Below, one piece after another: positions 683 through 58,530 of a DNA stretch of 64,000 bases. The DNA comes from Antedon mediterranea (lineage: Eukaryota > Echinodermata > Crinoidea > Comatulida > Antedonidae), in NCBI RefSeq assembly GCF_964355755.1, contig NC_092675.1:28418912-28482911 (forward strand), given 5' to 3'. Numbering within the stretch: the first letter of the stretch is position 1; every line of letters starts with the position of its first letter. The notes under the pieces were generated by a model. That model made no database searches. It saw only the letters and a list, made by a program, of their open reading frames with translations, and had not been told where the DNA came from. Made by a program: the position numbers and the translations under genes.

Positions 683-1182
683 GTAAGTTTAATTTAATTT
701 AAAAACAACATTCTTTTCGATCAAATGTGTTCTAGTTTTTTAAATGTCTATTGTTTACTATCAATTTTCCTTTCTTTCTGCACTCTTTATTTGATGTTCA
801 TATTGTTTGTATTAACAAATTAATTAGATCATTTCTTTTTTTACAAAACCAATGAAATAAAAACACTTTTAAAATTAAGTTGCTCTAAACACAGCCTTTT
901 CAGAAGAATAGCTGTTTTTCTGATAATAACTGTTTAATATAACTTTTTACCATCAATTAATTTTTTTAAATAAAAAATTAGCTTTAAAAATGTTGCTCTA
1001 CAAGCACATGATCTTACAATTTGCTATCTCTGTATTATTTTGGGATAAAACCAATCTGAAGCTATACAGTTAGGTTATCAGTTAAATGTACAATTATTAA
1101 AATCTATAAACGTTAACAAATAAATGGTTGATTTGTTTTCCGTTTATTAAACTGATACAGTATACATTTGTTTATACCTTAG
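683..1182 (+). other. Intron 1 of the BMP9/10-type gene
   Basis: This is a 500-bp phase-1 intron with donor gtaagt at 683 and acceptor AG at 1181-1182, preceded by a T-rich stretch. It is AT-rich and I see no embedded gene or repeat. A rival acceptor at 1159-1160 would give phase 0 and break the frame with exon 1. A rival AG at 1183-1184 also gives the wrong phase. Confidence 0.85.
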
Positions 1183-2045
1183 AGGTTGATGAGTTTTCTG
1201 GAAACTACGAGTTGGAATCATTAACAAAGTTTAGTGAGATTTTTTTACGTTTCAACGTTACAATTCCTATTCACGAGAAAGTCGTTCTAGCAGAACTTCG
1301 TCTTTTTGCAATAGTTAAACAAAAACAAGGAACTGGGGCCTTTGTCAAAATCGCTATATATGACAACGATGAAGAAAATGTCAACGGCCATTTTGAAAAG
1401 GTGCTCATAAAACATATATACAAGGAAAATAATGGTTGGGAAACTTTTGATTTGACGGATTACGTCATAAAACGACTTTCGACCAATAACAAACACGTGT
1501 GTTACTTGCGTGTTCAAATTGATGACATCATTCCGCAGATGCTAATAGATACCTCACAACACATCCAGTATCAACCTTTACTTGTTATATACTCTGATGA
1601 TGTTGTAAGCAACGTACATAGGAGAGACTCAAACGAATTGGACAATATGATAGATCAAGAAGTGGCGGCAAACTTTAAAATTGACAACAACCTTGGGAAG
1701 ATCCGAAACAGACGAGGATTAAATAGAAAAAACTACTGCCGGAAAAGAGAGATGACGGTTGATTTTAAAGAAATCGGTTACGATAATTGGATCATTGCTC
1801 CAAAATCCTATCAAGCTTTTCATTGTAGTGGACGGTGTATCTTCCCCTTAACAGATCGTTGGAGTCCCACAAAACATGCTGTTATACAGATATTGGTTCA
1901 CGAATTTAAGCCGAAACAATTCCCAAAGCCTTGCTGTGTTGCAAACAATCTGGAACCAATCTCTTTACTGTATATCAATGAGGGCGTTATAACGTACAAA
2001 CATAAATACGATGGAATGGTGGTTAAAGATTGCGCATGTCGGTAG
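1183..2045 (+). CDS. bmp9/10: BMP9/10-type ligand, exon 2 (prodomain, cleavage site, mature domain)
   Basis: This exon carries most of the TGFb propeptide domain (FNVTIP with an N-glycosylation sequon, then LAELRLF, then FDLTDYVIKRL) and the whole mature ligand. A dibasic furin site R286-N-R-R289 releases a 109-residue mature chain, G290-R398. The cystine knot is complete: C297, C326, C330, C362, C363, C395 and C397. C362 is the expected interchain cysteine of the dimer. Diagnostic stretches are FKEIGYDNWIIAP, SPTKHAVIQ and LEPISLLYINEGVITYK. They fit the BMP9/BMP10 subgroup, where LEPIS and GVxTYK are typical, better than BMP2/4, BMP5-8 or GDF8/11. By family, the product is a secreted dimer signalling through type I/II serine-threonine kinase receptors. 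TAG lies at 2043-2045, and a possible ATTAAA poly(A) signal is at 2134-2139. Confidence 0.94.
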
Positions 2046-40900: not shown

Positions 40901-41980
40901 TTTGGACTCATACATTGCGCGTGTATTAATTTATTTCGGACATGAATTCAATACAATAAATTAAGATACTACTAGTCATTGGGCTTGTAAATATATATAA
41001 CATCCTTCTATTTTATTAAAGGAAACATTATCGTGGGGTTGATGACTTTTAAAGACAAATCAGTAGTAAATGTCGTGATAAGTTTACGAAGTAATCGGCA
41101 AACCGTTGACCTCAAGTTGTATGTAAACCACGTCCAGGATTGAGACCCCACATTTTCAGACGGGGTGGTGCCTTGAATGTTGATGGAGCCACACTTTCAA
41201 CCGCTTTACAACATTTTATTTAATTCACCTACATTTGTCTGTTAGAATTTGATATAAGAATAATTGTTCAAGGTTTTAATCAATTATTCAATCTGTCATG
41301 TTTTTGTAAAGTTTTTACTTGTTTCAATATTTGAATCACTTTTTAAAAGGCACATATGGAATGTGTTTACATGTGATATGATCCACATCTCCGATTGAAG
41401 TTGAATGTGAGTACATTAGGCCTACGCCTGTATAAAGACTCATTTCCCCTATATTTACAGTCTACAATCTGCTGTTGATTTAACATTATAGAGGCAATGT
41501 GAAATAAAAAGTTAAAATATTGATACGACGGATAAACTTACCTTACTAACTTACCGTATGAACATTTGACTATATTTTTAATTAATGACCTATCTATGTT
41601 TGATTATGATTAGCTTTAGATCTTAAATATTGATACATTGAAGTGAAATTACTGCTAATTTTGTCTTAAACACATATAACCTATAATGTTCCGTAGACCT
41701 ACATTCTATAATTGAAATGTATTGTTCCTTCCCTTTTTAAAATGTGTAGAAATTAATTGAACTGGACGTTTCTTAGTAATCGAAAGTAACACAAAAATGA
41801 TATTAGGCCTATCTCTAAAGATCTTACAACAGCAGGGGAAAATACTAATACACAAACAAGCAATAGTGCAATTGAACTACAGTAGGTTATAAAAGAAATA
41901 CACGTAGGAGTGACCAGTCTAAAACGCAGTATTTGGATCAGTGGAGCAACGCAGAGGCTTGATTCCTCTGGAACCCAGAT

Positions 41981-42157
41981 GCGTGGTTCCCACTAGCGAC
42001 GCAACGCAAGGACGTAATGCAACGCAAGTGAATTGACCAATCACAAGCGATGGCTTATTCGATTGTGATTGCTAACTGTCTATAACTTCGCTTGTCATTG
42101 GTCAACACGCTTACGTTGCGTTTACGTCCTTGCGTTACGTTCTAGTGGGAACCAAGC
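41981..42157. mobile_element. GCKTGGTTCCCACTAG foldback MITE, 177 bp, inverted orientation
   Basis: It begins GCGTGGTTCCCACTAGCGAC and ends CTAGTGGGAACCAAGC. The whole unit is a near-palindrome with a GCGATGGCTTATTCG centre. Its reverse complement aligns with 42547-42723 and 53012-53188 at only a few differences, so these are recently amplified copies. Confidence 0.85.
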
Positions 42158-42161
42158 TTAA

Positions 42162-42352
42162 AGGGCCTTTCACACCTGCTCCGGCACGGTTCCGGTCCGG
42201 CGACGGCAAATCCAATCGAACGTCAATGTTTCGTTTTTACGCGGCTACGCGCATATCGATTGGTGCTTGGCCGCGTGGAGCGTCGTGAAAACGAAACATT
42301 GGCGTTCGATTCGCCGGACCGGAACCGTGCCGGAACAGGTGTGAAAGGCCCT
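42162..42352. mobile_element. TTAA-flanked 191-bp foldback MITE, second family
   Basis: The ends read AGGGCCTTTCACACCTG and its exact complement, and TTAA lies on each side (42158-42161 and 42353-42356). The arms continue with CCGGCACGGTTCCGGTCCGG against CCGGACCGGAACCGTGCCGG. Nearly the whole element can fold as one hairpin. It sits precisely at the junction between two GGTTCCC-type MITEs. No coding capacity; a frame seen here is an artefact of the repeat. Confidence 0.85.
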
Positions 42353-42356
42353 TTAA

Positions 42357-42541
42357 GCGTGGTTCCCACTAGAACGCAATGCAGCGACGTATCGGCGCAA
42401 AGTGTTGTATTGCGTAATCACAAGTGGGAACCGACGACGAAATAGTTTTTAGGTTTTATTTTACGCAGGAGGGGGAAAACACAATTATTAGAAGGGCATT
42501 TGCTTACGTTGCGTAGATGGCGTCGCTAGTGGGAACCAAGC
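42357..42541. mobile_element. GCKTGGTTCCCACTAG foldback MITE, 185-bp long subfamily
   Basis: It begins GCGTGGTTCCCACTAGAACG and ends CTAGTGGGAACCAAGC. It has an internal CAAGTGGGAACCGACGACG and a GGAGGGGGAAAACACAA stretch that the 177-bp copies lack. The element at 13603-13767 is the same subfamily in opposite orientation. Confidence 0.8.
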
Positions 42542-42546
42542 TTTAA

Positions 42547-42723
42547 GCTTGGTTCCCACTAGAACGTAACGCAAGGACGTAAACGCAACGCAAGCGTTTT
42601 AACCAATGACAAGCAAAGTTATAGACAGTTAGTAATCACAAGCGAATAAGCCATCGCTTCTGATTGGTCAATTCACTTGCGTTGGGTTACGTCCTTGCGT
42701 TGCGTCGCTAGTGGGAACCACGC
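42547..42723. mobile_element. GCKTGGTTCCCACTAG foldback MITE, 177 bp
   Basis: It begins GCTTGGTTCCCACTAGAACG and ends CTAGTGGGAACCACGC. It differs from 53012-53188 at about four of 177 positions by eye. It shares a five-base TTTAA junction (42542-42546) with its left neighbour. Confidence 0.85.
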
Positions 42724-44278
42724 TTTAGTGACACTCTGGATGCCGGGCGTATGTAGCCTTTTTTGACATATTTTAATGCCTGTTTTTTTTCTCTGGTCAC
42801 TTCGCAGGCCCTCTCCCCATTAACTCCGGGGCTCCTAGGTTTAGCCAGTGAGCGCTCATATCCGATCATTTTACAACTTGGCATATTTTCTCGTAAAAAT
42901 GCATGCAATGATATCAACCCAGCCAAAATAAATCTACTATGTACTTCAGAGCTCAACCACATAGGCCTAGTAAAATTTTCACTAATCTTTTATTTTTTAA
43001 AAGATCTGCAAGGAAATTTATCATTCTTCCTTTCGGTTATTATAAATGTCAGGTTATTATTCTTTTCTGATGAAATAAATCACTTACCGTATAATATATC
43101 TCAATGAAATGCTGTCTGTTGGCCATTCATTTTAATTATTTAGGCTAATACAGCTAAACTAATGCTTCCATCTTGTATACGCTGCACTAATTGACAAGTA
43201 GTGTGTTGATTGATGACGATGTAATAAGCCAACGTAAAAAAGAACACCCATACACAGTTCACTTTGACATTAACATTGTTGTCATTCATTTCATCTTTTT
43301 TTGCTTTTGTCATAAAACAAGGCCATATACATGGCTGCAGTCGCGTGCTCAAATTTGAGTTAGTGTTTAACCGACCGACCAACCAACCGACCGACCAACC
43401 AACCAACCGACCGACCGACCGACATAGTGAGCTGTAGACTAACAATTGTGTTCTTAATTCTAAATTGGTAACGTATTATTTTAGACCATATAACCCCAAC
43501 CCAACCTGCCATGATACAGGCATTATATGTGATACACACGAGATGCTGTATTGCGGAATTGTCCTATGATATTTGGACAACTATTGTTATTTTCGACATG
43601 GAACTGTCAATCATTATGAAGAACAGATGTGCCGTTACCACTTGATTTAGTTATTTTCACTAATAGGCCTTCCTGATCATTAATTAAAGTAATTAGTTCA
43701 TCTGACACAACAACACAAATTAAGATCATTGTATTAATTCAAAAAAATCACACAGAAATGTAACATGATATTTTGATTGTGATTTTTTGACAGTTCACTG
43801 AAATGCAAATGAACATGCCACACCTGGCCGCCAGTCATTTAAGCGTGGATAATCATGTATTGGCGCTTGTTGTTGAAATCACATTATTTTCCTCAACATT
43901 ATAAACTCAAAAGCCATTTTCTGTGTTTAGTGACCAATAGTTGACCAGAGCAATCTTATAAACATTACGGTATTACTTTTCTGTGGACTAAAACTATTAT
44001 TATTATTATGCAGTCGGAAGCTACACTATTTATTAACAAAATAATTATACATGTATTACTATAGACTTGCCCCAATAAGTAGTTATTTCGAGGCTGTTCG
44101 ATGTTTGTTTGAAATACAAGCTTAAGTAGTATACGTATGAAACGCCATATGTGCCGAAATATTCATCCTTTTACTAATATTAAGTCAAAACTCCGTCTGG
44201 AACCCAGACTATACTAGTATTACTAGGTCCATGGTCTAATATCAAATTAAAGTTATTTGATCATTTGAATATTCAGAG
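42724..44278 (+). other. Intron 1 DNA between the MITE cluster and the LTR element
   Basis: Frames of 84-114 codons on opposite strands at 42708-43107 overlap and lack features. It holds the CCGA/CCAA microsatellite at 43371. No gene is supported. Confidence 0.4.
43371..43423. repeat. CCGA/CCAA microsatellite
   Basis: Tandem tetranucleotides CCGA and CCAA alternate over about 53 bases. An open frame on the minus strand (VGRSVGWLVGR-like) is produced by this repeat. Confidence 0.9.
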
Positions 44279-44283
44279 ACAGT
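44279..44283 (+). repeat. Left 5-bp target-site duplication (ACAGT)
   Basis: ACAGT directly precedes the 5' LTR and is repeated at 48325-48329 directly after the 3' LTR. Five-base duplications are usual for LTR-element integrases. Confidence 0.9.
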
Positions 44284-44786
44284 TGTAACTGCAGCCTACT
44301 TATAGGAGGCCCTCTAGAGTTCAAATAGATAAAAAGTGATAAGAGAGAATAAGACATTTTATAAGACATTTTTTATGACATAAAGTTTAGAGATAATCGT
44401 TGTTCAAAGTATCTTTACCATAGGCTCCAATAAGGCTACAAGGTATTTACACGTGGTTATTCATGTGATTGTAATTATAACTTATGACATGTATTTTTAA
44501 TTAGTTGAGTTTTACTTCATTGCTGAAAGCTAGCCCTAGGCCTTAGGGTATCATGTTCCCCGGCCCCATGAGTCAGACCTGTGCTTGTCTGCCTGTACGA
44601 TGATGATATGATTAGGCCTACATTGTAATGCTAATCTTTGTTTTATTATAGTTTTCACGGTGTTTATTCAAGTTGCTAATGATACTGTAATTTGTAGAGA
44701 TACAAGAGATAGTTCAGAGAATAAATAAAGGAACATCAGTATCTACAAAATTTGTAATTTATTTATGATGGACGCCTACGGTAACA
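44284..44786 (+). repeat. 5' LTR, 503 bp
   Basis: It begins TGTAACTGCAGCC and ends GGTAACA, giving TG...CA termini. AATAAA at 44720-44725 is a likely poly(A) signal near the R/U5 part. It contains the start codon of the element's ORF (44765), which is unusual. AGTTTTCAC at 44650-44658 is complementary to the first nine bases after the LTR. No clear TATA box can be fixed. Confidence 0.93.
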
Positions 44787-47700
44787 GTGAAAACTTAGCT
44801 GATGAAAACTCAATGAATCTAAGAGAACAGAGTGAGAGACGCCCTACAGCTAAGGCCCTGTCAATTAGCATTGCTACTGAAGTAAAACTGTTGAGTCAAA
44901 CTCAGAGAAAGGCTCAAGAAGCATCAAGTGAACTAGAAGATGTTTCAAGTGACGAATTTGAGATACAAACTGCATTATGCAAAGCTAAAGCTGCATTAAA
45001 GGAATATAGTGATGCTTGGTGCGTATTGAATAAATTGTATGCACAAGATAGAGATGGTATTCATCGCGAAGATCACCTGGAGAATGAGAACATATATCTC
45101 ACCATTACCAACTCCATCCAAGCTAGTATAACAAGCGCTATGGATAGGGCACATGCATTAGCCCTGGAGTGTCAAGCCTCAAAATCTGCAGCATCAAGGA
45201 GTTCATGTCGATCTATTGTTAGCATTAAAGCTCAAGCTGTGGCGAATGCTGCTGCAGCCAACAAAACTGCTCAATTTGCTGAAAAAATGGCTAAACAGAA
45301 AGCAGACCTTACAGCAAAGGAAGCTGAAATGGAAATTAAAAAAGCAGAAGCAAGGCTTGAAGAAATAAGGCGGGAAGCACAGCAAAGAACAGAACATGCC
45401 AAAGCTGAAGCAGAGTTCAAAGTTTTAGAGGCTAAACAAGCTGCAGCTGTAGAGAATGCACGAGTTGATGCAATTCAACAGGAAATTCAGAACGGATATG
45501 GAGAAATTATGACCACACCACACCAAACCTCAAATGATCATGCACTAAGGTTTTGCAACCTAACCAAACCTCAACCTCTAATGACACAGACACAAGCAAC
45601 AACAGCCCAACCGACAATGCCTCAAAATCAATCTAGCAGTACCACAGACTTAAACGCTTTAGCAGAAGCCTTTTCTTCAGCCTTCAGTATGAACCGCATA
45701 CCAGCACCAGAGCCACCAATATTCGATGGCGATCCTCTTAAGTACTATGATTGGAACGCATCCTTTAGATGGTTAATCGAAAATAAAGGAATTTCTAAGG
45801 CAGACAGAATTCACTACCTTAAGAGATACATAGGAGGCCCAGCAAAGGAAGTTGTCAGTGGATACTTTCTGCTACAAGGTGAACATGCTTATGAAAACGC
45901 TAAAGCAGTTTTAGAAAAAAGATATGGAAATCCATTTATAGTTTCCGAAGCATTTAGAGACAAATTAGACAGCTGGCCAAGGATTCAAGCAAGAGATTAC
46001 AATGGCCTTAGGCGACTCTCTGACTTTCTGAACCAATGCAACATAGCAATGAAGGAAATGAAAGGCTTAGAAGTTCTTAATGACAGCAGAGAAAACCGGA
46101 AAATTCTTCAAAAATTACCAGATTGGTTAGTGAATAGATGGCGAAGAAACGCAGTGAGCGCTATGCAAATCAAGGGTAGTTATCCAACATTCAATGACTT
46201 TTCCACATTTTTGACGACCGAAGCCGAAATTGTTTGCGATCCTGTTACCTTAATACCAGAAAATGAAACAAAATTCACAGAAAAAAGTTCAAGATATCGA
46301 AACCAATCTCAAACGCTAGCCACCAGTATCAGTGCAATGCCATCATGCTTCATGTGTAAAATGAATAACCATCACCTAAGTGACTGCAGAGCGTTTGCCA
46401 GAAAACCTGAAACCGAAAAACAGCAATACATCAAGCAAAATGGTCTATGCTTCAGCTGCTTACAACATGGCCATGTGTCAAGGAACTGTAACCAGAAAAG
46501 TATTTGTAAAATTTGCCAAAGGAGACATCCAACAAGTCTCCATGTAAAGGAGAGAGATTCAGCTCACGAGATAACTGAAGCACAAATGCAGGTTATCAAG
46601 TTACAAGAGACCGTCACTAAGAAAGAGACACTATTGCAGGATTTAGCCACAAAGTATGCTAAGAAAAATGATGAGTTAGCAGAAATTAAAGAAGAAAGAG
46701 ATCTGGTTAAAGGGAAATCAGATGACGAACTTGCTTATATGAACAAACAACTTCAACAGGCTGTAGCGTCTAATCCATCTAACATTAGTGAACAATTGGC
46801 TTTACTACATGCAGAACTTGATGAGACTTATGGACAACAAATTGTTATGATTAAGTCACAGCTGCAGGAAAGACACCAGAATGAAATGCAAGAATTGCAA
46901 AAGAAATGTGAAGAAGATGCTGAAACTAACAACAAAATTAGAGATGCATTAGAACAGAATTTAAAGGAACTCCAAGACCAATTAGATGAGAAAGAGATGG
47001 ACTTAGAGGCTTGTCAGAACATCCAAAAAGACTTCGAAGATCAAGTTGCACTTCTTAATAATCACAACAAGGAACTAACAGAGAAAATGGAGAAAGAAGA
47101 AGATGTAACTTTGCAACTTCATCGAGAGCTTGATGAAGCTAACCAAGAAATAAAGAAGAAAACTTCAGAGTTAGATGAAAGAGTTACCCAGTTTATTGAT
47201 GAAAAGGAAAGATTGGAAAATGAATATCGGAAAAGGTTTGAAGATGAAAGTGCCCATCAAGAAGATATCCATCGCATTGCATTAAACCAACAGCGTTCTG
47301 AAGTTGTTGCTGAAATTGATCGCAAAATGAAACCCAAAGTAGAAGAAGTTGAAGACCATTTCAAGGTTCAATTCTGTACTGAAAAATCGGACAAAGAGAA
47401 CGAATTTGTTCAAGAATTCCAGAACATTCGACAGCAGTTAGCAGAATCTCATGCAGAAGAGATTGAAGCTGTTACAAAGAAAATCACAGATGAATTAACT
47501 GAAAAGCATGAGATTATGCTAGAGGAGGAAACGAAAAAGCTCTTCAAAGGAATAAATGATATATCTGAAGAGAAGGTATCAACGGAGCAGAATCGGAATA
47601 AAGATTGGATTGAAAATCAAGGAAAAGAATTAAAGGAACAAATTGTAAATATAAAAGTCGAGCTTCAACAAGTGAACAAAAAGAATTCAAAAATACAAAC

Positions 47701-47809
47701 TGTTAACTTATTCTTTATAGTTTTGGTAAATATTGTTAATATACTTCCAGTTTTGCATTACTTGTGTTTATTCTGGCAAGGGTGGGAGTTAAGGTTAAAT
47801 CATAGATGA
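44765..47809 (+). CDS. Gag polyprotein fused in frame to an AKAP9-like coiled coil
   Basis: The product is 1014 aa and intact. Residues 1-260 are Ala/Glu/Lys-rich and probably helical, followed by a Q/T-rich linker. Residues about 315-490 are the DUF1759 Gag core of BEL/Pao elements (PPIFDGDPLKYYDW, then LEKRYGNP). Zinc-knuckle motifs follow: C528-X2-C-X4-H-X4-C541, C562-X2-C-X4-H-X4-C575, and C581-X2-C-X3-H-X4-H593. In a normal element protease and RT would come next. Here about residues 606-970 are continuous heptad-like coiled coil. Residues 683-694 (AELDETYGQQIV) with the following QERHQNEMQ closely match, from memory, human AKAP9. The tail has a hydrophobic segment at 980-1004. By family, Gag packages element RNA, and the coiled coil may drive multimerisation or centrosome/Golgi targeting (inference). 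The start lies inside the LTR, and an ATG-ATG pair opens the frame. Confidence 0.9.
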   Translation: MMDAYGNSENLADENSMNLREQSERRPTAKALSISIATEVKLLSQTQRKAQEASSELEDVSSDEFEIQTALCKAKAALKEYSDAWCVLNKLYAQDRDGIHREDHLENENIYLTITNSIQASITSAMDRAHALALECQASKSAASRSSCRSIVSIKAQAVANAAAANKTAQFAEKMAKQKADLTAKEAEMEIKKAEARLEEIRREAQQRTEHAKAEAEFKVLEAKQAAAVENARVDAIQQEIQNGYGEIMTTPHQTSNDHALRFCNLTKPQPLMTQTQATTAQPTMPQNQSSSTTDLNALAEAFSSAFSMNRIPAPEPPIFDGDPLKYYDWNASFRWLIENKGISKADRIHYLKRYIGGPAKEVVSGYFLLQGEHAYENAKAVLEKRYGNPFIVSEAFRDKLDSWPRIQARDYNGLRRLSDFLNQCNIAMKEMKGLEVLNDSRENRKILQKLPDWLVNRWRRNAVSAMQIKGSYPTFNDFSTFLTTEAEIVCDPVTLIPENETKFTEKSSRYRNQSQTLATSISAMPSCFMCKMNNHHLSDCRAFARKPETEKQQYIKQNGLCFSCLQHGHVSRNCNQKSICKICQRRHPTSLHVKERDSAHEITEAQMQVIKLQETVTKKETLLQDLATKYAKKNDELAEIKEERDLVKGKSDDELAYMNKQLQQAVASNPSNISEQLALLHAELDETYGQQIVMIKSQLQERHQNEMQELQKKCEEDAETNNKIRDALEQNLKELQDQLDEKEMDLEACQNIQKDFEDQVALLNNHNKELTEKMEKEEDVTLQLHRELDEANQEIKKKTSELDERVTQFIDEKERLENEYRKRFEDESAHQEDIHRIALNQQRSEVVAEIDRKMKPKVEEVEDHFKVQFCTEKSDKENEFVQEFQNIRQQLAESHAEEIEAVTKKITDELTEKHEIMLEEETKKLFKGINDISEEKVSTEQNRNKDWIENQGKELKEQIVNIKVELQQVNKKNSKIQTVNLFFIVLVNIVNILPVLHYLCLFWQGWELRLNHR
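44787..44795 (+). promoter_or_regulatory. Putative self-priming site after the 5' LTR
   Basis: The first bases after the LTR are GTGAAAACT, not the TGG that begins a site matching a tRNA 3' end. They are the exact complement of AGTTTTCAC at 44650-44658 in the LTR. This arrangement resembles the self-primed reverse transcription known for the yeast element Tf1. The site is also coding sequence of the Gag ORF. Function is inferred. Confidence 0.4.
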
Positions 47810-47821
47810 TTTGGGTGGGAG
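47810..47821 (+). other. Polypurine tract before the 3' LTR
   Basis: TTTGGGTGGGAG directly precedes the TG of the 3' LTR and follows the ORF's TGA by no gap. This is the expected plus-strand primer site. A near copy, AGGGTGGGAG, lies 36 bases upstream inside the ORF. Confidence 0.75.
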
Positions 47822-48324
47822 TGTAACTGCAGCCTACTTATAGGAGGCCCTCTAGAGTTCAAATAGATAAAAAGTGATAAGAGAGAATAAGACATTTTAT
47901 AAGACATTTTTTATGACATAAAGTTTAGAGATAATCGTTGTTCAAAGTATCTTTACCATAGGCTCCAATAAGGCTACAAGGTATTTACACGTGGTTATTC
48001 ATGTGATTGTAATTATAACTTATGACATGTATTTTTAATTAGTTGAGTTTTACTTCATTGCTGAAAGCTAGCCCTAGGCCTTAGGGTATCATGTTCCCCG
48101 GCCCCATGAGTCAGACCTGTGCTTGTCTGCCTGTACGATGATGATATGATTAGGCCTACATTGTAATGCTAATCTTTGTTTTATTATAGTTTTCACGGTG
48201 TTTATTCAAGTTGCTAATGATACTGTAATTTGTAGAGATACAAGAGATAGTTCAGAGAATAAATAAAGGAACATCAGTATCTACAAAATTTGTAATTTAT
48301 TTATGATGGACGCCTACGGTAACA
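47822..48324 (+). repeat. 3' LTR, 503 bp
   Basis: Reads as identical to 44284-44786 over all 503 positions. It ends GGTAACA and is followed at once by ACAGT. Confidence 0.93.
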
Positions 48325-48329
48325 ACAGT
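48325..48329 (+). repeat. Right 5-bp target-site duplication (ACAGT)
   Basis: Matches 44279-44283 and completes the signature of integrase-mediated insertion. Confidence 0.9.
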
Positions 48330-53007: not shown

Positions 53008-53011
53008 TCAA

Positions 53012-53188
53012 GCTTGGTTCCCACTAGAACGTAACGCAAGGACGTAAACGCAACGCAAGCGTTTTAACCAATGACAAGCGAAGTTATAGACAGTTAGCAA
53101 TCACAAGCGAATAAGCCATCGCTTGTGATTGGTCAATTCACTTGCGTTGCGTTACGTCCTTGCGTTGCGTCGCTAGTGGGAACCACGC
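53012..53188. mobile_element. GCKTGGTTCCCACTAG foldback MITE, 177 bp
   Basis: A full-length copy nearly identical to 42547-42723 (about four differences by eye) and to the reverse complement of 41981-42157. The right end CCACGCTTTAA is the family norm. Confidence 0.85.
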
Positions 53189-53224
53189 TTTAAGGAATAA
53201 AGTAGAAACAGACATGGGTTACTG

Positions 53225-56300: not shown

Positions 56301-56974
56301 TCCGGCATGTTAGACATTGATGCATTTTACAACAACGGTTTTCACTAACCGCTTGACTGCCACATACCGTATATGTTACGTAATTTACTGTAGCAGGTGC
56401 CTAGTCAAATAAGGTCTTAAAAATAAAATAGATTCAGTATTGTCCAGGTTGTAATAAATCCAATAAATGTGATTGGTCAAGATAGTGATGTAGGTCTATT
56501 TATTGTTTTTAAATTAGACCACCACTATCGGTCTTAACAAAAATCGAATATTACCATTAACAACAACCGGCCTCTGCCAAATTCAAATGGTATACGTCAC
56601 AAAAAAAAATCACGGCAGTGAAAAAATACAATTACGGTGTTACAGAATAATTTAAAAAACTATTTATCCCTTTATTTGTATACATTTTGGAAATACGAGT
56701 GTATTTTTTTCATACTAACAAGAATTCATAGAGAAGATGAGTTCCATGTTTTAGGAACCTGCTACACAAGAAGTACCCATATGCTTCGAATAATCTATAA
56801 CATGAACAGATAATTTGCAACATATTTAATTGCAGATTGAAAACAAAGATTAGTCCACGAAAATACCTGTTTTATTCACTTTAACAAAGCGAATATTCAA
56901 ACTGTCTGATAATTTATTTGATGCAAACAGTTTGGATTTATATATTACAAATATTATTTATTTATTTCTTTCAG
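53301..56974 (+). other. End of intron 1 of the BMP3/GDF10-type gene
   Basis: AT-rich DNA with one MITE (54055). It ends with the acceptor TTTATTTCTTTCAG at 56961-56974. Frames of up to 98 codons have no features. No gene is supported. Confidence 0.5.
54055..54219. mobile_element. MITE, AAGCTCTGTCTAYACTATCA family, copy 3
   Basis: It begins TAAGCTCTGTTCCCACTATCAAAC and ends GTTTGATAGTGTAGACAACACTTTA. The interior repeats CCCAAATRTGGTAGT and shares GTCACATAAAG with copy 1. No coding capacity. Confidence 0.7.
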
Positions 56975-57930
56975 AATCTACTTGCACTGACAAGCACATG
57001 TTTCTTATAAAGTTGAAACCAAAAGGCGAAAAGAAGAATATCCTTAAATCTGAGCTTTACATAAGTAATCGAAAACCGCTACAACCGTCGCAATTTAAAA
57101 ATACCAACATGAGCGAACTTGTAATAATGGCCTACGATGTACAAGATAATGACAACTGCGCCAAAATCGGTACGTTTTCGTTAGCTGAGTTTGGGGGCGA
57201 AGGATGGCAAACGCTTGACATAACATCACTTCTTTCACAACTCACCGAAGAATTAACGAAGAAAGCAGTATTGGGACTAACATTCAAAGTAAAAAGCAAA
57301 AGGTCTGATGAAAATAACGAAATTGATTATAAAAACGACTGGTGGAATAAGTTGATGTCAAAGAAAAAAATGTTGCAGAAGCGAGGACGACCATTTATTC
57401 TTGTTCACGTAGAAGACAAGTCTGTGGATACATCCCTGACGTCACCACCATTTCAACGATTATCAGAAACCGTGACAAGCGCCATCAACAGTCGATCAGC
57501 AAGGAGTGTTTTTGTTCCAAACCCAAAGCCAATCAACGAATCAAATTATTACACGTATAATATGATGTCCAACGAATATCCAATGGCACCTGTTGAAGTT
57601 GTAAAAGCACCAGAACAAAAATTTCCCGAATTTCTTGACCAAAATTCCAGGCGAAGGAAAGAGAGAAAAAACAAAAAACGTAAAAACAGGCGAAAGAATG
57701 GAATTGCTCCTTTTGGTGGTGAAGATACCAAACCTTTATCAAATGATGCAGAACAAATTGTTAATCTGCAAAAGACTGAAAATGAAGGATACAAAAACAC
57801 AGAAGGACTATGCTCAGTTAGAAAATTGAGTGTTAATTTCAAAGATCTTGGTTGGGATAATTTTGTGATTGCTCCAGACTTGTTCACACCTAACTATTGT
57901 GCAGGCTCCTGTCCGTATCCACTTCAAAAG
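56975..57930 (+). CDS. bmp3/gdf10: BMP3/GDF10-type ligand, exon 2 (prodomain, basic cleavage region, first half of mature domain)
   Basis: The acceptor TTTCTTTCAG ends at 56974. The exon supplies two bases of codon 97 and residues 98-415. The prodomain continues with MFLIKLKP, KSELYIS and GWQTLDITSLL, the last typical of TGFb propeptides. A strongly basic run at 322-337 (RRRKERKNKKRKNRRK) offers furin sites RKNR and KNRR, giving a mature chain of about 140 residues. The knot begins at C376 with FKDLGWDNFVIAP, C405 and C409. The exon ends SCPYPLQK|gtaata (intron at 57931), phase 0. The split inside the mature domain at this residue is, as I recall, the intron position of vertebrate BMP3 and GDF10. 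It strongly supports that subfamily over other BMPs, whose mature domains are intronless. Known BMP3 members often act as modulators or antagonists of BMP signalling. Whether this one does is not visible. Confidence 0.92.
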
Positions 57931-58530
57931 GTAATACAGGCAAAGATTATATCATCTTTGATACAGTAACAAGCATGATTATAAAAAAAAACATTCATTA
58001 ATATTGTATATTTTCAATTTTAGTTAACAAATTGATCATTCGCCTTATTGATCAAAAGTTCATAAACTTTTCAATTTTGGATTTGAAAACAGTCACTCTC
58101 TAAAAAAAACCTGGATAAATACTTTTTATCATGACTGATTTTCATATGGGGGTCTTACGAGAAAATAAATACTACAATATTCCATTGATAAGCCTGGTTC
58201 CCACTAGGATACAACGCAAGAGGAGTAAGCGCAACTCATTTACGTAATGTGACCAATCATGACACGATGGATCATCATCTATCACGTAGTGATTGATCAG
58301 ATCACTTGCGTTGCCCTTACGTTCGGTCAACTGTTAAAAGTAACTTTTACGCTCATTTGTTTTTGTTTTTAATATTTATTGCTATCCATAATATCCACAA
58401 TATCATAAATTTTTTTTTTAAATTAACAAAATCATACAGATACCCTACCACCACTACAAAGCGTATACTACCGGCATTCTTAATTATTATACTTATTTAT
58501 ATCTTCGAAATATTTCTTCTTTTTTTTTAG
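57931..58530 (+). other. Intron 2 of the BMP3/GDF10-type gene
   Basis: A 600-bp phase-0 intron, GTAATA...TTTTTTTTAG. It contains a truncated GGTTCCC-type MITE (58190-58316), so part of its length is transposon-derived. Confidence 0.85.
58190..58316. mobile_element. GCKTGGTTCCCACTAG MITE, right-truncated copy in intron 2
   Basis: It begins AGCCTGGTTCCCACTAGGAT, with the core TGTGACCAATCATGACACGATGG and GTGATTGATCAGATCACTTG. It ends near TTACGTTCGG without the terminal GTGGGAACC. Confidence 0.65.

What the first reader, a model, noticed from the sequence alone, without database searches (positions are those of the whole stretch)
44765..47809. BEL/Pao-type Gag fused in frame to a captured AKAP9-like coiled coil
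The ORF runs without a break from a DUF1759 Gag core and zinc-knuckle motifs into about 370 residues of coiled coil, in the place of protease, RT and integrase. AELDETYGQQIV and its surroundings recall a specific AKAP9 stretch, not just generic heptads. AKAP9-type genes have many introns, so an intronless copy implies capture of spliced mRNA, like retroviral transduction of host genes. The fusion frame is fully open in a very recent insertion. This suggests it is translated and perhaps useful to the element, for example by multimerising Gag or directing it to the centrosome. The function is inference.
Basis: partly seen in the sequence, partly recalled or inferred. Interest (0 to 1): 0.92.

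Follow-up and report, generated by a model that had tools for sequence, protein, structure and literature searches.

The report
Retrotransposon carrying a stolen centrosome-gene fragment
In a feather star's genome, a jumping element has replaced its own enzyme genes with a piece of the host's AKAP9/pericentrin gene, fused in frame to its coat protein, and this chimera has copied itself to several chromosomes.

Summary
Window 44284-48324 is a complete 4,041-bp LTR element with identical 503-bp LTRs, an ACAGT target-site duplication and one 1,014-codon frame: BEL/Pao Gag (DUF1759, zinc knuckle) followed by about 378 residues of coiled coil. The coiled coil is a captured piece of a host gene on contig C1 (93% nucleotide identity), an AKAP9/pericentrin orthologue by its PACT domain and colinear matches. 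Parents are present: four 7.1-kb copies with the same LTR and Gag and a 2,023-codon frame without the tail. Both joints and an in-frame 387-nt internal deletion lie at short similarities, as expected of reverse-transcriptase template switching. At least nine loci carry the chimera, from six independent insertions with their own 5-bp duplications; three of the six keep the whole frame open.

The captured piece lies inside one host exon, so lack of introns does not show capture of spliced mRNA. It lacks PACT, so centrosome targeting is unlikely. Tail changes among copies fit neutrality (low power), so usefulness is unproven. Most likely: a non-autonomous chimera moved in trans by its parent, a new animal BEL/Pao variant of known host-gene transduction.

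The parts
44279..44283 (.). target-site duplication, left copy (ACAGT)
   Evidence: directly read; same as 48325-48329
44284..44786 (+). 5' LTR (503 bp, TG...CA); carries the Gag start codon near its 3' end
   Evidence: 100% identical to 3' LTR
44765..47809 (+). single open frame: Gag + captured AKAP9/pericentrin coiled coil + short read-out of the element's 3' end (1,014 aa)
45722..46153 (+). DUF1759 Gag core
   Evidence: Pfam PF03564, E = 8e-15
46445..46492 (+). CCHC zinc knuckle
   Evidence: PF00098, E = 0.35, below cut-off; motif visible in sequence
46551..46572 (+). 5' joint Gag/host: short similarity between parent element and host exon, including ACGAGAT in both
   Evidence: parent pieces L032/L034/L036 and host L016 compared
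46559..47630 (+). captured host block A; one 18-nt in-frame gap relative to host near 46914
   Evidence: 93% nt identity to the exon at C1:14958608-14962738
47622..47630 (+). internal deletion joint GAAAAGAAT: 387 nt (129 codons) of host exon missing, in frame
   Evidence: 387 counted from its alignment coordinates
47622..47695 (+). captured host block B
   Evidence: 89% nt identity over 74 nt
47690..47821 (+). parental 3' end, joined one frame off Pol, so the chimera reads past Pol's stop into non-coding sequence; ends in the polypurine tract TTTGGGTGGGAG at 47810-47821
   Evidence: L033/L035/L037; tract read by eye
47822..48324 (+). 3' LTR
48325..48329 (.). target-site duplication, right copy (ACAGT)

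Best explanation
A non-autonomous chimeric BEL/Pao LTR retrotransposon. During reverse transcription of an autonomous 7.1-kb parent, the enzyme switched templates at short similarities onto an RNA of the host AKAP9/pericentrin gene and back. This replaced the Pol region (protease, RT, integrase, as judged from relatives) with part of one host exon, in frame with Gag. The result (LTR, Gag-coiled coil, polypurine tract, LTR) then spread using the enzymes of intact parents in trans, much like a defective Gag-onc retrovirus with its helper. The coiled coil most likely rides as a tolerated C-terminal extension of Gag. Shown: structure, donor gene, parent, joints, repeated insertion. Inferred: an RNA (not DNA) donor, trans-mobilisation, translation of the fusion, and the tail being a passenger.
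For: Donor exon in a PACT-bearing host gene. Four parent copies with a 2,023-codon frame, 3 of 4 without stops in the matched part; a parent 3' piece ends in DUF5641, E = 3.7e-28, and relative P0009 has Pao peptidase, RT, integrase zinc-binding and DUF5641. Similarity at the joints. Six TSDs: ACAGT, AGACC, ATAAT, AGGGG, CTCAC, AAATC. LTR pairs with 0-6 mismatches. No second ORF of 80 aa or more inside the element. Tail evolution among copies fits neutrality.
Against: Silent-site divergence host/tail (19 of 199 sites) is about three times that of Gag between the window copy and one parent copy (12 of 383; 11-17 for the eight copies compared), P = 0.0016 (0.001-0.018 over that range). A single recent capture from the present host allele thus does not fit without a divergent donor allele or later exchange of Gag and LTRs with parents. 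The branch shared by C6 and C2 has 4 synonymous and 4 non-synonymous tail changes, a hint of constraint (P = 0.04 or 0.15 by the neutral fraction used). No RNA or protein data. A DNA-level origin is not excluded because no intron is spanned.
Confidence: 0.82

Rival explanations
1. The captured coiled coil is selected: it multimerises Gag, or tethers it to Golgi, dynein or gamma-tubulin partners of the AKAP9 N-terminal region, which helps particle assembly or transport.
For: Frame kept open through the joint and two in-frame gaps of 18 and 387 nt. Six independent chimera insertions were found against four full-length parents (lower bounds). In mammals the N-terminal part of AKAP450 binds GM130 and p150Glued, and GCP2/GCP3 by one report (passages of PMC4113106). 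C6/C2 branch 4 S: 4 N.
Against: Tail changes among six insertions fit neutrality (6 S: 20 N, 7.1 S expected, P = 0.77), while Gag shows mild constraint (20 S: 35 N, 13.4 S expected, P = 0.024); tail and Gag do not differ significantly, P = 0.31. A smaller element may spread for other reasons. The same paper's authors found no gamma-tubulin interaction of the most N-terminal part, and whether the captured piece covers any of these binding sites is unknown.
Confidence: 0.15
2. The captured fragment makes the element a source of small RNAs that match, and may silence, the host AKAP9/pericentrin gene, as LTR-borne PxyMasc retrocopies do in the diamondback moth.
For: 26% (290 of 1,109) of 26-mers of the window tail match the host locus perfectly; longest perfect stretch 133 nt. 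Precedent: PMC9674220 (passages).
Against: The tail is in sense orientation, so antisense transcription would be needed; no small-RNA data available here.
Confidence: 0.06
3. The chimera arose by DNA-level recombination or repair between a genomic element copy and the host gene, not by template switching on RNA.
For: No intron is spanned, so RNA is not proven.
Against: Both joints and the 387-nt deletion lie at short similarities; the host segment is in sense orientation. Template switching at microsimilarities between element RNA and cellular mRNA is the described route for such chimeras (passages of PMC5408686).
Confidence: 0.12
4. The tail is only a generic coiled coil or an ancestral domain of this Gag lineage.
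For: Heptad-like composition.
Against: 93% nt identity to an exon of a PACT-bearing host gene; the tail search did not hit the four parent copies, whose Gag reads on into Pol in the pieces seen (3 of 4 copies).
Confidence: 0.01

Closest known systems
Maize Bs1 LTR element (captured segments of plasma-membrane H+-ATPase and two other genes)
   Same: LTR element carrying cellular gene segments that form a hybrid ORF (passages of PMC13317346; original papers not read)
   Different: Plant element and genes; here an animal BEL/Pao element, one captured exon, and full-length parents still present
LTR-mediated retroposition in metazoans (Tan et al. 2016, seen only as cited in PMC5408686; paper not held)
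   Same: Chimeras explained by template switching at microsimilarities between LTR-element RNA and cellular mRNA (passages)
   Different: Here the product is a replicating family with its own Gag-host fusion frame; the captured piece lies in one exon, so splicing cannot be judged
Acutely transforming retroviruses with Gag-onc fusions (recalled; only a search listing seen)
   Same: Host coding sequence replaces pol and is fused in frame to Gag; defective element needing a helper
   Different: Germ-line LTR retrotransposon of a crinoid; captured gene is a structural coiled-coil protein; no known phenotype
PxyMasc retrocopies beside LTR-element gag, Plutella xylostella (passages of PMC9674220)
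   Same: Host cDNA piece next to LTR-element gag sequence, multicopy
   Different: Those are W-linked arrays giving antisense piRNAs to the host gene; here sense orientation, dispersed, no role shown

Membership tests
BEL/Pao LTR retrotransposon | DUF1759-type Gag with zinc knuckles | tested here: met
   PF03564 E = 8e-15; knuckle sub-threshold; Gag relative P0009 (53% identity over 50% of the Gag) carries the Pao peptidase PF05380, RT and integrase zinc-binding domains
BEL/Pao LTR retrotransposon | Paired LTRs TG...CA, 5-bp TSD, polypurine tract before the 3' LTR | tested here: met
   tract recognised by eye
BEL/Pao LTR retrotransposon | Own protease, RT, RNaseH and integrase (autonomous member) | tested here: not met
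   no pol sequence between Gag and 3' LTR; one ORF of 80 aa or more in the element. The parents have a 2,023-codon frame; their Pol domains were not scanned in full
BEL/Pao LTR retrotransposon | tRNA primer-binding site after the 5' LTR | not tested
   no TGG directly after the 5' LTR by eye; not pursued
Transduced host gene (LTR element with captured cellular sequence) | Captured segment traceable to a separate host gene | tested here: met
   C1 exon, 93% nt identity; PACT domain downstream on the same strand, E = 2.4e-24
Transduced host gene (LTR element with captured cellular sequence) | Joints at microsimilarity with a parent element | tested here: met
   no chance estimate was made for the similarities
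Transduced host gene (LTR element with captured cellular sequence) | Origin from spliced mRNA (introns lost) | tested here: inconclusive
   source lies in a single exon
AKAP9/pericentrin (donor gene) | C-terminal PACT domain | tested here: met
   L039:7754-7996(-), PF10495. That it belongs to the same gene as the exon is inferred from strand, colinear coiled-coil frames and recalled AKAP9 fragments. Not in the captured piece

The most novel reading that the evidence does not exclude
The Gag-AKAP9 fusion is a working protein: the captured N-terminal coiled coil gives the element's particles a grip on the host microtubule/Golgi machinery, or on the host AKAP9 protein itself. A transposon would then have stolen an intracellular transport or assembly device from its host and outgrown its autonomous parent with it.
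Probability: 0.12. Interest if true: 0.88.

Novelty: new variant of a known kind. Interest (0 to 1): 0.62.

Why it matters
Host-gene capture by LTR retroelements is well known from tumour retroviruses and plants. Here donor gene, autonomous parent and multiplied chimera all lie in one animal genome, so both switch points can be read and the fate of the captured piece followed. It makes a specific question testable: does a captured scaffold-protein piece on Gag do anything for the element, or is it freight?

Tried and rejected
Generic coiled coil: rejected (host-gene match). Solved structures: only weak hits (apolipoprotein E, a heat-shock protein, a designed miniprotein), E of 0.02 or more. 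Pfam on the tail: one sub-threshold hit to a flagellar protein, E = 0.012, taken as chance. Protein-database search with the tail: only the window's own protein; that search does not reach proteins much longer than the query, so absence there means little. Search with the host exon: one hit, P0029 from Lytechinus pictus, called 'trichohyalin-like'. It matches four stretches in three exons of the host gene, in order, and its N-terminus resembles human AKAP9 as I recall it. Polarising host/tail amino-acid differences with P0029: of 44 differences 4 agree with host, 9 with tail, 31 with neither; changes avoid sites where host and urchin agree (4 of 98 against 40 of 266, P = 0.003), which shows constraint somewhere on the host or element branch but not on which. 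Structure prediction was never run. A genome search for further PACT genes did not complete, so I do not know how many there are. The four loci on C10 and C1 share flanks and count as one insertion. Five of the 42 LTR matches, at three places (C4:9.16 Mb, C4:14.77 Mb, C3:12.94 Mb), were not looked at.

Literature: searches (25 of 259 papers listed; 8 of 8; none found, perhaps for its wording; 12 of 149; 7 of 7; 8 of 1,187; 12 of 84) showed no BEL/Pao element with an AKAP9-type gene in the rows listed; the library is partial.
Full report
WHAT IS THERE. The window holds a complete, recently inserted LTR element at 44284-48324. The two LTRs are identical over 503 nt and the insertion is flanked by ACAGT on both sides. 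One frame, 44765-47809, runs for 1,014 codons. Its start codon lies within the 5' LTR. It begins with a BEL/Pao-type Gag (DUF1759 at residues 320-463, E = 8e-15; a zinc knuckle below Pfam's cut-off) and goes on, with no stop, into about 378 residues of coiled-coil type (hydrophobic period 3.5, reached by 6 of 2,000 shuffles). No second frame of 80 codons or more lies in the element.

WHICH ORGANISM. The best Gag relative is P0002, named as a protein of Antedon mediterranea (98% identity over 79% of the Gag). The length of its contig, 36,192,472, equals that of contig C4 of the window's own assembly. The window is therefore inferred to be from this crinoid; it is C6:28418912-28482911.

WHERE THE TAIL COMES FROM. 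A search of the own assembly with the tail gave 15 matches. Fourteen lie in nine loci that carry the same chimera; one lies elsewhere, C1:14961602-14962696. That place is an exon with a 1,377-codon open frame, starting after a splice acceptor. The tail matches it at 93% nucleotide identity, then skips 387 nt (129 codons) and matches 74 nt more at 89%. About 46 kb further down on the same strand lies a PACT domain (PF10495, E = 2.4e-24), which targets AKAP450/AKAP9 and pericentrin to the centrosome. One of them matches the window tail directly with 38.1 bits; 200 shuffles of it reach at most 19.6. The only database relative of the exon was a sea-urchin protein, P0029, whose matches fall on four stretches in three exons of the host gene, in order. 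AKAP9 and pericentrin share PACT, so 'AKAP9/pericentrin orthologue' is the safe name.

WHERE THE ELEMENT COMES FROM. Searches with the LTR and with P0002 show four 7.1-kb copies with paired LTRs 95-96% identical to that of the window. Each has a 2,023-codon open frame; 3 of 4 have no stop in the part matched by P0002, one (C7) has one. A parent 3' piece encodes DUF5641 up to Pol's stop, and the Gag relative P0009 has Pao peptidase, RT, integrase zinc-binding and DUF5641 domains; the middle of the parents was not read. Pieces around the joints were read for C6, C10 and C7 (3 of 4). At the 5' joint the parent Gag resembles the host exon over about 20 nt, including ACGAGAT in both; the chimera switches within it. 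At the 3' joint the chimera passes from host GAATTC..AATATA to the parental AAAATACAAAC, next to Pol's stop codon and one frame off, so that it reads into non-coding sequence and gains a short C-terminal read-out. The 387-nt deletion has the 9-nt repeat GAAAAGAAT at its ends. All three points fit template switching or slippage by reverse transcriptase; no chance estimate was made for the similarities.

IT HAS MULTIPLIED. The nine loci are C6 (window), C2, C4, C8, C3, C10 and three on C1; the tool scores only the best candidates, so nine is a lower bound. Target-site duplications are ACAGT, AGACC, ATAAT, AGGGG and CTCAC for the first five. The C10 and C1 loci have AAATC on every side that was recovered (the left side of C1b lay outside the fetched stretch) and shared flanks: C10 and C1a are 99% identical over 8.8 kb, the 3.6-kb element included. 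They are copies of one insertion carried in a larger duplicated stretch. So there are six independent insertions. LTR mismatches between the two ends are 0/503, 1/503, 0/503, 6/490 and 5/493 for C6, C2, C4, C8 and C3 (the 5' LTR of C8 is interrupted by extra sequence), 3/283, 2/283 and 3/283 for C10, C1a and C1c, and 2/253 for the cut C1b. Frames: C6 and C4 are open to codon 1,014, C3 to 1,004; C2 has a stop near the very end of the tail; C8 has a frame-shifting insertion in gag; the C10/C1 group has stops and shifts in the tail. Three of six independent insertions keep the whole fusion frame.

IS THE TAIL USED? Among the six insertions (C1a stood for the C10/C1 group) the tail has 26 segregating events, 6 synonymous and 20 not; 7.1 synonymous are expected from the same mutation types placed at random (P = 0.77). 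Gag has 20 synonymous and 35 not, 13.4 expected (P = 0.024). The two do not differ significantly (P = 0.31). With all nine loci the tail has 8 synonymous and 26 other derived events. So Gag shows mild constraint and the tail none that can be detected, but power is low. In favour of use: the branch shared by C6 and C2 has 4 synonymous and 4 other changes (P = 0.04 or 0.15 by the neutral fraction taken), and the joint and both gaps keep the frame, which chance alone would give in about one of 27 cases (my estimate, made after the fact). The host/tail comparison (19 S, 34 N; 12.3 S expected, P = 0.02; dN/dS 0.36-0.50 against single copies) mixes host and element branches.

The source segment starts about 46 nt inside one exon and ends in the same exon, so being intronless proves nothing about splicing. 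Sense orientation and the joints still make RNA the likelier donor. The captured piece lacks PACT; in mammals centrosome targeting rests on PACT, whereas the N-terminal part binds GM130 and p150Glued and, by one report that the paper's authors could not fully match, GCP2/3 (passages of PMC4113106). If the tail does anything, Golgi, dynein or gamma-tubulin partners are better guesses than the centrosome; whether the captured piece covers those binding sites is unknown.

MOST LIKELY WORKING. LTRs drive a 4-kb RNA that encodes Gag-coiled coil. It has kept the polypurine tract and LTR ends of the parent, and uses the parent's enzymes in trans. Trans-mobilisation is inferred from the absence of pol, the presence of intact parents and the repeated insertions; it was not tested.

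UNEXPLAINED. Silent divergence between host exon and tail is 19 of 199 sites; that of Gag between the window copy and one parent copy is 12 of 383 (P = 0.0016), with 11-17 for the eight copies compared (P 0.001-0.018). Either the donor allele was already divergent (a very polymorphic host, or a related species), or Gag and LTRs of the chimera were later exchanged with parents. The second is made plausible by the C10/C1 group, whose LTR is a different, shorter type (283 nt) beside an otherwise about 98% identical body.

COMPARISON. The kind is known: maize Bs1 (passages of PMC13317346), LTR-mediated retroposition by template switching at microsimilarities in metazoans (passages of PMC5408686), and, from recall, Gag-onc retroviruses. 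I saw no BEL/Pao case with an AKAP9-type gene in the rows listed; most listings were cut short, and the library is partial. I rate it a new variant of a known kind: an animal BEL/Pao element whose Gag-host fusion forms a replicating family, with donor and parent both present in the same genome.

Noticed in passing
L017-L020 (C10 and three C1 loci): Four copies of one chimera insertion sit in near-identical flanking DNA (C10 and C1a 99% identical over 8.8 kb, element included), so a larger duplicated or mobile stretch has carried the element along; the C1c locus also repeats its 3' part.
   Followed up: partly
window 44765-44811: The Gag start codon lies inside the 5' LTR, and no canonical TGG primer-binding site follows the LTR directly, so the coding frame would run through the primer site; the primer is unknown.
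   Followed up: no
L017-L020: A second LTR type (283 nt against 503) is joined to an about 98% identical chimera body, suggesting LTR exchange between element lineages.
   Followed up: partly
L032 (parent gag end): The parent carries a tandemly repeated segment of about 32 codons (VKERD...KTSN) just after the zinc knuckles, at the very place of the chimera joint.
   Followed up: no
window 1110-2045 and 56854-57969 (+): Two frames that look like TGF-beta/BMP-type ligand exons (by eye, recalled motifs) lie on the same strand on either side of the element.
   Followed up: no
window 41979-42727 and 53010-53192: A repeat family with inverted copies (arms of 206 nt, 90% complementary) upstream of the element and a 98% copy about 10 kb downstream.
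   Followed up: no
C4:9164029-9165750, C4:14769413-14769695, C3:12941025-12941091: Five further LTR matches at three places, not assigned to a parent or chimera copy; possibly solo or broken LTRs.
   Followed up: no
P0029: A sea-urchin protein named 'trichohyalin-like' in the database looks like the N-terminal part of the AKAP9/pericentrin orthologue, so the name seems wrong.
   Followed up: partly
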